Of a stretch of 64,000 nucleotides of DNA, positions 18,592-51,622 are shown in pieces. A model generated the notes under the pieces. It was not told where the DNA came from and did no database searches. It saw only the letters and a list, made by a program, of their open reading frames with translations. Positions within the stretch are counted from its first letter, which is position 1. Each line of letters starts with the position of its first letter. The stretch covers positions 496,001 through 560,000 of the forward strand of contig NJBN01000002.1 of NCBI GenBank assembly GCA_005223185.1, written 5' to 3'. A program made the translations under genes and the position numbers. Source of the DNA: a candidate division LCP-89 bacterium B3_LCP (GTDB lineage: Bacteria; Electryoneota; B3-LCP).

Positions 18592-18644
18592 GGATTATAT
18601 ATCGTAGTCTGTATAGGTGGGTTTATCTAAACAGTTATTCACCG

Positions 18645-18761
18645 CCCGGAAATAAATTTCCAGGCTAATTTAATGCTGTCCCGCAAAGCGGGACGCTTAA
18701 ATGCCTTTACATCCGTCGGCCGACGGATAGAAATTAAATAGCTCGGGAATTTATTCCCGAG
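18645..18761 (+). repeat. MITE-like nested hairpin element, copy 1
   Basis: About 117 bases with imperfect terminal inverted repeats: CCCGGAAATAAATTTCC then AGGCTAATTTAA at one end and TTAAATAGCTCGGG with AATTTATTCCCGAG at the other. Inside are two more palindromes, GTCCCGC-AAA-GCGGGAC and ATCCGTCGGCCGACGGAT. A full copy in the opposite orientation lies at 39434-39543 and a half copy at 22914-22967. No transposase is encoded. Confidence 0.8.
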
Positions 18762-22780: not shown

Positions 22781-22850
22781 TAGGTTCGGGGGGGAGGATA
22801 GGCATTCTTGCCTGTCAGATAAGAATATCTAACCTCCCCAATGAGAACAA

Positions 22851-22897
22851 CATCAGGTCATACTTCCCGCCTTCGGCGTCCAAGACCTGACGCAACA
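22851..22897 (-). repeat. Dispersed TCAGGTC hairpin repeat, copy 1
   Basis: An inverted repeat of about 47 bases: on the minus strand GTTGCGTCAGGTCTTG, a 17-base spacer and then ATGACCTGATG. The same arms recur at 55634-55678. It lies between the convergent M42 and GGQ genes and might also help to end transcription. Confidence 0.6.
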
Positions 22898-22913
22898 TGT
22901 AAACCATCCGAAA

Positions 22914-22967
22914 GTGTCCCGCTTGCGGGACAGCATAAAAATAGCCCGGAAATTGATTTTCGGGCTG
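22914..22967 (-). repeat. MITE-like nested hairpin element, half copy
   Basis: On the minus strand it matches the first half of the element at 18645: AGCCCGAAAATCAATTTCCGG, then GGCTATTTTTATGCTG, then the GTCCCGC-A-AGCGGGAC hairpin. The second half with the GTCGGCCGAC palindrome is missing. Confidence 0.65.
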
Positions 22968-24100: not shown

Positions 24101-24110
24101 CATTAGTGTT

Positions 24111-24170
24111 TTGTCGGGGCGACTGGATTTTCCCATAGGGACTCCTATGGAGGAACCAGCGACCTCATGT
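24111..24170 (-). pseudogene. Broken duplicate of the tRNA-Pro 3' half
   Basis: Twenty bases, TTGTCGGGGCGACTGGATTT, are repeated exactly 60 bases from the same sequence in the functional tRNA (24171-24190). In this copy the T-loop is then split by about 22 bases that include the palindrome CCATAGG-GACT-CCTATGG, after which GAACCAGCGAC resumes. The anticodon arm is missing, so it cannot be a working tRNA. Confidence 0.7.
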
Positions 24171-24173
24171 TTG

Positions 24174-24247
24174 TCGGGGCGACTGGATTTGAACCAGCGA
24201 CTCCATACTCCCGAAGCATGTGCGCTACCGGACTGCGCTACGCCCCG
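24174..24247 (-). tRNA. tRNA-Pro (anticodon CGG)
   Basis: On the minus strand the 74 bases fold as a full cloverleaf: acceptor CGGGGCG pairs with CGCCCCG (7 of 7), D-arm GCGC/GCGC, anticodon arm CATGC-TTCGGGA-GTATG (one G-U pair) with anticodon CGG, and T-arm GCTGG-TTCAAAT-CCAGT. The discriminator is A and CCA is not encoded. The overall sequence closely resembles bacterial tRNA-Pro. Confidence 0.95.
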
Positions 24248-39219: not shown

Positions 39220-39277
39220 AGGCTTGCAACATTTATACAATAATTCAAAGGTCTCTTCAGGGGGGCAAATATCCGTA

Positions 39278-39299
39278 GCCCAGCGCTTTAGCACTGGGC
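39278..39299. repeat. GCCCAG hairpin repeat
   Basis: GCCCAG-CGCTTTAGCA-CTGGGC, a 6-base stem whose loop contains a further GC/GC pairing. It may be a small dispersed repeat; no second exact copy was noticed in the window. Confidence 0.4.
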
Positions 39300-39433: not shown

Positions 39434-39543
39434 GATTCCCGAGCTAATTTAATTCAGTCCGTCGGCTGATGGACGAAAAAACACATTCAGAGCGTCCCAC
39501 TTCAGTGGGACAGCATAAATTAGCCTGGAAAATTATTCCCGGG
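39434..39543 (-). repeat. MITE-like nested hairpin element, copy 2
   Basis: On the minus strand it aligns over its full length with the element at 18645: CCCGGGAATAATTTTCCAGG, GCTAATTTATGCT, GTCCCACTGAAGTGGGAC, the GTCCATCAGCCGACGGAC palindrome, and AATTAAATTAGCTCGGGAA. The inner stem differs from copy 1 (GTCCCAC/GTGGGAC versus GTCCCGC/GCGGGAC) but stays fully paired. Confidence 0.8.
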
Positions 39544-43969: not shown

Positions 43970-44061
43970 GGGGAGAGAGGGGGAATTGGGAACGAACCAG
44001 AACATCAAGCTATCCCGGCTACCCGCGAGGTGAGAATTTTTGTGTTTTTTATTATTTTAGC

Positions 44062-49597: not shown

Positions 49598-49650
49598 CCG
49601 GGACATCCCCAAAGGGGTGGCTTCGCCACAAGCTGTCCCGGCCACCCGCC
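49598..49650. repeat. CCGGGACA/TGTCCCGG hairpin repeat, copy 1
   Basis: CCGGGACATCCCC, a variable loop holding AGGGGTGGCTTCGCCAC, then AAGCTGTCCCGGCCACCCGCC. The GGGACA/TGTCCC arms and the terminal GGCCACCCGCC recur at 51521-51575. Confidence 0.65.
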
Positions 49651-49696
49651 AAAATGTTGGGTTGCGCTGTGCTTAACCCAACCTACAAATTATTAT

Positions 49697-51469: not shown

Positions 51470-51622
51470 GGTAGGGATAAGAGAACAGAAGACAGAGAAC
51501 AGAGGACAGAGAAAACCAGTCCGGGACATCCTGACTTCGTCAGTCCCTTCGGGAAAGCTGTCCCGGCCACCCGCCACTACTGGCCAGTCAAGTCGCCAAG
51601 ATGGTGGTGGTGCGGTAGGGGA
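51451..51622 (+). repeat. Direct repeat flanking a hairpin insertion
   Basis: GCCAAGATGGTGGTGGTG followed by GGTAGGGA occurs at 51451-51477 and again at 51595-51621 with one or two changes. Between the two lie a purine-rich ACAGAGAACAGAGG tract and the CCGGGACA/TGTCCCGG hairpin at 51521-51575. The first copy supplies the end of the upstream gene. Confidence 0.65.
51521..51575. repeat. CCGGGACA/TGTCCCGG hairpin repeat, copy 2
   Basis: CCGGGACATCCTGACTTCGT, then CAGTCCCTTCGGGAAAGCTG and TCCCGGCCACCCGCC. It has the same outer arms and end as 49598-49650 with a different loop. Confidence 0.65.

What the first reader, a model, noticed from the sequence alone, without database searches (positions are those of the whole stretch)
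18645..18761. MITE-like element with covarying hairpins, present in opposite orientations
Copies at 18645-18761 and 39434-39543 align over the whole length with terminal inverted repeats, and a half copy lies at 22914. The central stem changes from GTCCCGC/GCGGGAC to GTCCCAC/GTGGGAC while remaining paired, and GTCGGCCGAC becomes a similar palindrome. Paired change indicates selection for the structure. No transposase is nearby, so it would move in trans or act as RNA.
Basis: seen in the sequence. Interest (0 to 1): 0.6.

Follow-up and report, generated by a model that had tools for sequence, protein, structure and literature searches.

The report
Hairpin mini-transposon and its matching transposase
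The repeat is one of about 40 copies of a tiny transposon made of four DNA hairpins, and its matching single-strand transposase belongs to a group whose DNA partner was not known, so the finding links an orphan enzyme family to what it most likely moves.

Summary
The 117-bp element at 18645-18761 recurs in its own genome (29 places at E<0.01 with one query; 83 strand-wise covariance-model matches, about 40 places) and in all five other held genomes of its family, but in none of 55 outside it. It consists of two inverted units, each an inner hairpin, a spacer, a [G/A/T]TAG tag and an outer hairpin. Stems covary strongly across 60 copies in six genera.

The parent was found. In the same genome a 146-aa Y1 (HUH) transposase gene sits exactly between one left and one right unit; a 143-aa paralogue is also flanked by them. 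The eight other Y1 genes of that genome have other hairpins. The transposase carries the signature of TnpA_Y1 subclass 1.2 (DHVH, WQ, Y---Q--HH), described in 2018 as having no hairpins or REPs. Here 64 of 105 such genes, from about nine phyla, have the same tag-and-double-hairpin unit beside them (0.6 expected). In one planctomycete it is dispersed too.

Best reading: a non-autonomous, REPIN-like element moved in trans by a subclass 1.2 transposase through single-stranded DNA. Movement itself is inferred. Covariation fits a DNA substrate; an RNA role is not needed.

The parts
18629..18644 (+). conserved left extension (consensus AAATAGCCTTACACCG; here AAACAGTTATTCACCG)
   Evidence: Flank alignment of 18 copies: information content falls off about 22 nt left of the first hairpin; no such conservation on the right.
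18645..18664 (+). L unit, outer hairpin H1 (CCCGGAAAT..ATTTCCAGG)
18665..18677 (+). L unit spacer CTAATTTAATGCT with inverted tag (CTAA, i.e. TTAG on the - strand, at 18665-18668)
   Evidence: CTA invariant in A1.
18678..18694 (+). L unit, inner hairpin H2 (GTCCCGC AAA GCGGGAC)
   Evidence: 99% of cells paired, 3 pairs with changes on both sides.
18711..18728 (+). R unit, inner hairpin H3 (ATCCGTC GGCC GACGGAT)
   Evidence: 3 pairs with changes on both sides.
18738..18741 (+). R unit tag ATAG (GTAG in the related genera G002, G004, G005)
18742..18761 (+). R unit, outer hairpin H4 (CTCGGGAATTTATTCCCGAG)
39434..39543 (-). second copy, L and R units, right outer hairpin cut short; H3 39457-39474, H2 39494-39511, H1 39524-39543
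   Evidence: E 3e-18.
22916..22964 (-). half copy: L unit only (H2 22916-22931, H1 22945-22964)
   Evidence: E 3.5e-11.

Best explanation
The repeat is a non-autonomous, REPIN-like transposable element of about 120-135 bp: two double-hairpin units in inverted orientation with the tags inside, without the gene that lies between the same units elsewhere in the genome. Its enzyme is a small Y1 (HUH single-tyrosine) transposase of TnpA_Y1 subclass 1.2 (C16:80732-81169, and a 55%-identical paralogue at C15:70738-71160). Most likely the enzyme recognises the folded hairpins and TAG tags on single-stranded DNA, cuts and rejoins there, and inserts the element elsewhere without a target duplication, as IS200/IS605 elements do and REP systems are thought to do. 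Shown: the copies, hairpins, covariation, intergenic positions, absence of target duplications, an ortholog site without the element, and the specific pairing of these units with this transposase subclass. Inferred: that the enzyme is active, that it moves the element, and the cut sites.
For: 29 places in the genome and copies in all six family genomes, none in 55 others. Covariation: 60 copies, 96.6% of pair cells paired vs 82.0% shuffled, 267 double changes vs 67.9 sd 10.5 (A1 alone). L032 tnpA lies between an L unit 4 bp upstream and an R unit just downstream; L031 reads L-R-tnpA-R; related cassettes in G001, G002 and G004. Of ten Y1 genes in the genome only these two carry the units (scores 43-66 vs at most 20 for the other eight). 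Transposase: IS200/IS605 family (NF033573 above cut-off), homologous to IS608 TnpA (E 3e-11), subclass 1.2 motifs. Tagged double-hairpin units beside 64 of 105 related genes vs 0.6 in shuffles, tags GTAG 93, ATAG 37, TTAG 13, CTAG 0. Unit dispersed in Roseimaritima (54 matches). No target duplications, all 15 copies tested intergenic, conserved left flank only. Window site without the element in G003.
Against: No excision or insertion was observed, and no close strains were available for an exact empty site; the G003 site could be a loss. Only two divergent transposase genes (55% identical) exist, so the enzyme is not amplified like a typical IS; one relative is frameshifted (G001) and one has an in-frame stop (G004). 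In Pontiella the unit stays local (2 matches), and the cyanobacterial and several deep relatives lack a recognisable unit. The clade separating it from IS608 and ISDra2 has only moderate support (SH-aLRT 83).
Confidence: 0.8

Rival explanations
1. A transcribed structured RNA or 3' end element (terminator, mRNA stabiliser, regulatory RNA) that spread by recombination and is kept for its RNA structure.
For: Covarying hairpins, intergenic positions, one weak terminator-like match on the - strand.
Against: No Rfam family at gathering score; no consistent T-run after the hairpins; position not conserved; the same units sit precisely around a transposase gene, which RNA function does not explain.
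Confidence: 0.06
2. The element is moved by one of the class 2 RAYT transposases of the same genome; its proximity to the subclass 1.2 genes is incidental.
For: The genome encodes six RAYT-like Y1 genes, and the tag in related genera is GTAG, the classic REP tag.
Against: The RAYT genes have different hairpins beside them and no match to the units; the subclass 1.2 association recurs in many phyla.
Confidence: 0.06
3. The hairpins covary not through selection but through template-switch repair that makes near-palindromes perfect; the copies are inert relics of a formerly active element.
For: Whole stems are exchanged at once (GTCCGTC..GACGGAC vs GTCCC..GGGAC); half copies and cut copies are common.
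Against: Tags and spacers outside the stems are conserved too; two intact tnpA reading frames with catalytic motifs remain; a persistent C-A mismatch in H1 is not corrected.
Confidence: 0.15

Closest known systems
REPINs and REPtrons (REP doublets with RAYT / TnpA_REP; Bertels and Rainey 2011, PMC3116915; Quentin 2018, PMC6006769)
   Same: Inverted pair of tagged palindromes, intergenic, dozens of copies per genome, singlet remnants, low-copy divergent Y1 enzyme flanked by the same units, GTAG tag in related genera.
   Different: Enzyme is subclass 1.2 (Y---Q--HH), not class 2 (Y---NP); each unit holds two hairpins; tag is ATAG/TTAG in this genome.
PATEs, transposase-free derivatives of IS605-type elements (Haloquadratum, PMC3119063; Halanaerobium, PMC7290912)
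   Same: Ends-only derivative of a Y1-transposase element, near-terminal palindromes, no target duplication, tips of palindromes hit by small repeats.
   Different: PATEs are defined as lacking terminal inverted repeats and derive from IS605-type transposons; here the ends are inverted and doubled, and the enzyme is of another subclass.
IS200/IS605 insertion sequences (IS608, ISDra2)
   Same: Y1 HUH transposase, hairpin ends, no target duplication, asymmetric flanks.
   Different: Not in multiple near-identical copies; different subclass; two hairpins per end.
GTAG-tagged palindromic repeats (Di Nocera 2013, PMC3733652)
   Same: Tagged palindromes, often dimers, some in Planctomycetes.
   Different: There linked to RAYTs or TIRYTs; no link to subclass 1.2.

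Membership tests
TnpA_Y1 subclass 1.2 (transposase L032/L031) | DH[IV]H, WQ and Y---Q--HH motifs, about 148 aa | tested here: met
   Both G000 proteins (143 and 146 aa); 102 of 107 relatives have Y---Q--HH.
TnpA_Y1 subclass 1.2 (transposase L032/L031) | low copy number, no IS-like near-identical copies | tested here: met
   Two copies, 55-56% identical.
TnpA_Y1 subclass 1.2 (transposase L032/L031) | no associated hairpins (as described in 2018) | tested here: not met
   Units beside 64 of 105 genes. This is the new point: the 2018 statement is a failure to detect, not a feature of the protein.
REPIN / REPtron (RAYT system) | two inverted tagged palindromes as the repeated unit | tested here: met
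REPIN / REPtron (RAYT system) | cognate enzyme is class 2 TnpA_REP (Y---NP) | tested here: not met
   Cognate enzyme has Y---Q--HH.
PATE | no terminal inverted repeats | tested here: not met
   L and R units are inverted relatives: the element matches its own model on both strands over the full length.
PATE | ends related to those of a Y1-transposase element; too short to encode it; no target duplication | tested here: met
classic MITE (DDE transposase) | target-site duplication | tested here: not met
   No direct repeats above chance at any offset in 18 copies.
IS200/IS605-type transposition | single-strand excision and insertion by TnpA | not testable with these tools
   Needs biochemistry.
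known structured RNA family | match to an Rfam model at gathering score | tested here: not met
   Only a tRNA was found in the window.

The most novel reading that the evidence does not exclude
TnpA_Y1 subclass 1.2 is in general the enzyme of its own REP-like system, distinct from RAYTs: across many phyla it maintains families of double-hairpin units (inner hairpin, about 10 nt, [G/A/T]TAG, outer hairpin) as inverted doublets, forming an evolutionary link between mobile IS200 elements and domesticated REP systems.
Probability: 0.55. Interest if true: 0.72.

Novelty: new variant of a known kind. Interest (0 to 1): 0.6.

Why it matters
The 2018 classification of single-strand Y1 transposases left subclass 1.2 without a DNA partner and judged it not IS-like. 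This gives it a specific, testable partner, in one genome and in many phyla, and shows a system with features of both IS200 elements and REP/RAYT systems. It would also account for a common kind of hairpin repeat in genomes of uncultured bacteria.

Tried and rejected
Target-site duplications: none. Rfam: nothing beyond a tRNA. RAYTs as the cognate enzyme: rejected, other hairpins. Exact empty sites: relatives are different genera, flanks too diverged to align; only the absence at the G003 ortholog could be shown. Pontiella dispersal test: unit only local. Plasmid collection: only three distant relatives, of which Persicobacter has the unit and Bernardetia and Megaera have none recognised. The organism of the window could not be named with these tools. 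Literature: no paper on a DNA partner of subclass 1.2 in the held open-access library; subscription papers and ISfinder were not available.

Full report
OBSERVATION. The two copies at 18645-18761 (+) and 39434-39543 (-) and a half copy at 22916-22964 (-) are real. One copy used as query finds 29 places with E below 0.01 in the window's genome (3.79 Mb, 18 contigs), besides itself at 74-98% identity; about 17 are full length, and nearly all of the partial ones keep the left half. A covariance model gives 83 strand-wise matches, about 40 places because each element matches on both strands. All five other held genomes of the family, each of another genus, have it; none of 55 genomes outside the family does at E 0.001.

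ANATOMY. The left unit is outer hairpin H1, CTAATTTTATGCT, inner hairpin H2. The right unit is inner hairpin H3, AGAAATTGAATAG, outer hairpin H4. The right unit is an inverted relative of the left. Read 5' to 3', both units say: inner hairpin GTCC..GGAC, about 10 nt, TAG tag, outer hairpin. In genera G002, G004 and G005 the tag reads GTAG in most copies. Conserved sequence extends about 16 nt left of H1 (AAATAGCCTTACACCG) but not right of H4, and there are no target-site duplications in 18 copies. The fifteen copies tested lie outside open frames of 150 aa or more. Both window copies fold as single-stranded DNA far better than shuffles.

COVARIATION. In 14 full copies of this genome 96.2% of pair cells are standard pairs against 90.3% in shuffles, with 29 double changes against 10.1. 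In 60 copies from six genera it is 96.6% against 82.0%, with 267 double changes against 67.9 (sd 10.5, maximum 93 in 200 shuffles; that alignment was fitted to the model, so it leans towards the structure). H3 changes whole arms at once. This shows that the hairpins are maintained. It does not by itself prove selection, because template-switch repair of near-palindromes can change both arms in one event.

THE TRANSPOSASE. The genome holds ten Y1_Tnp genes. One, C16:80732-81169 (146 aa), has an L unit ending 4 bp before its start region and an R unit directly after its end: the element with a gene in the middle. A 143-aa paralogue at C15:70738-71160 (56% identical, 55%) has the layout L-R-tnpA-R. 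Relatives in G001 (frameshifted, L-R-tnpA-R), G002 and G004 (one in-frame TGA) are flanked as well. Scored against both units, only these two of the ten genes have them beside them (43-66 against at most 20). The six RAYT-type genes have other hairpins. Both enzymes score above the cut-off of the IS200/IS605 transposase model and far below that of the RAYT model, and match IS608 TnpA.

CLASS OF THE ENZYME. Quentin et al. 2018 (PMC6006769) define subclass 1.2 by DH[IV]H, WQ, Y---Q--HH, about 148 aa, low copy number and no hairpins, mostly in Cyanobacteria and Bacteroidetes. Both enzymes fit the motifs, and so do nearly all of 107 relatives. In a quick tree they group apart from IS608 and ISDra2, with moderate support. 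The reference sequences of that paper were not available here, so the assignment rests on the published signature.

GENERALITY. Around 105 relatives I searched 230-250 bp on each side for a [N]TAG tag followed directly by a hairpin: 72 have one (10.4 in shuffles), 40 have one on both sides (0.2), and 64 also have an inner hairpin 6-17 nt before the tag (0.6). Of 42 control genes from the same loci 8 have one, none on both sides, 6 with the inner hairpin (some of these may be dispersed copies). Tags are GTAG 93, ATAG 37, TTAG 13, CTAG 0. Genes with the unit come from Planctomycetota (34 of 44), Acidobacteriota (9 of 10), Verrucomicrobiota (4 of 8), Bacteroidota, Kiritimatiellota, Omnitrophota, Myxococcota, Pseudomonadota and the window's own phylum. 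An independent test shows inverted repeats around 43 of 105 genes above the 99th percentile of mismatched flanks. The loci were picked by similarity to one query, so the fractions apply to this clade. In Roseimaritima sediminicola the unit has 54 matches over many contigs; in Pontiella it stays local.

MOBILITY. In G003 the ortholog genes on either side of the window copy are adjacent, with about 40 bp between them and no element. This is compatible with insertion in the window's lineage, or with loss in G003. No movement was observed.

INTERPRETATION. The best reading is a non-autonomous element in the manner of REPINs and PATEs, moved in trans through single-stranded DNA by a subclass 1.2 transposase. 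It is not a REPIN in the strict sense, because its enzyme is not a class 2 RAYT; not a PATE as first defined, because its ends are inverted repeats (PMC3119063); and not a classic MITE, because target duplications are missing. It works like the first two. What is known of how REP and IS200/IS605 enzymes read hairpins and 5' tags (PMC8266576) makes the TAG tag the likely guide sequence here, by inference.

Noticed in passing
L003, L004, L009, L011, L013, L021, L026, L198, L243, L244 and others; not in the window copies: A 19-22 nt sequence made of two tiny abutting hairpins (TCCNNNGGANTCCNNNGGA) occurs at 35 places in the genome (0 for the backward control); 10 of 20 sampled copies sit exactly at the tip of a palindrome with a stem of 8 or more (1% of random positions), replacing the loop of H1 or H4. 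It recalls the SMR-A repeats that hit PATE palindromes in Haloquadratum (PMC3119063).
   Followed up: partly
window 39275-39299: A GTAG-tagged hairpin (GTAGCCCAGCGCTTTAGCACTGGGC) of the kind found beside another Y1 gene of the genome (L034), so the genome seems to hold several parallel tagged-hairpin systems, each with its own Y1 gene.
   Followed up: partly
window 44007-44028, 49630-49651, 51538-51576: Repeats AAGCTGTCCCGGCCACCCGCCA match the hairpin beside the RAYT gene L037 and are probably REP copies of that system.
   Followed up: no
window 22848-22898; L022; L203: A second repeat containing GCGTCAGGTC / GACCTGACGC lies directly next to several half copies of the element.
   Followed up: no
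window 24110-24130 and 24170-24190: Exact 21-bp direct repeat, 60 bp apart, the second copy overlapping the 3' end of the tRNA gene at 24174-24247 (-); may be an old attachment site.
   Followed up: no
L033 (G000 C12:418317-418652): This Y1 gene is flanked by direct, not inverted, copies of a long multi-hairpin repeat with no resemblance to the element studied.
   Followed up: no
L019: One copy has two left units in inverted orientation instead of left plus right, which suggests that either unit can serve as either end.
   Followed up: no
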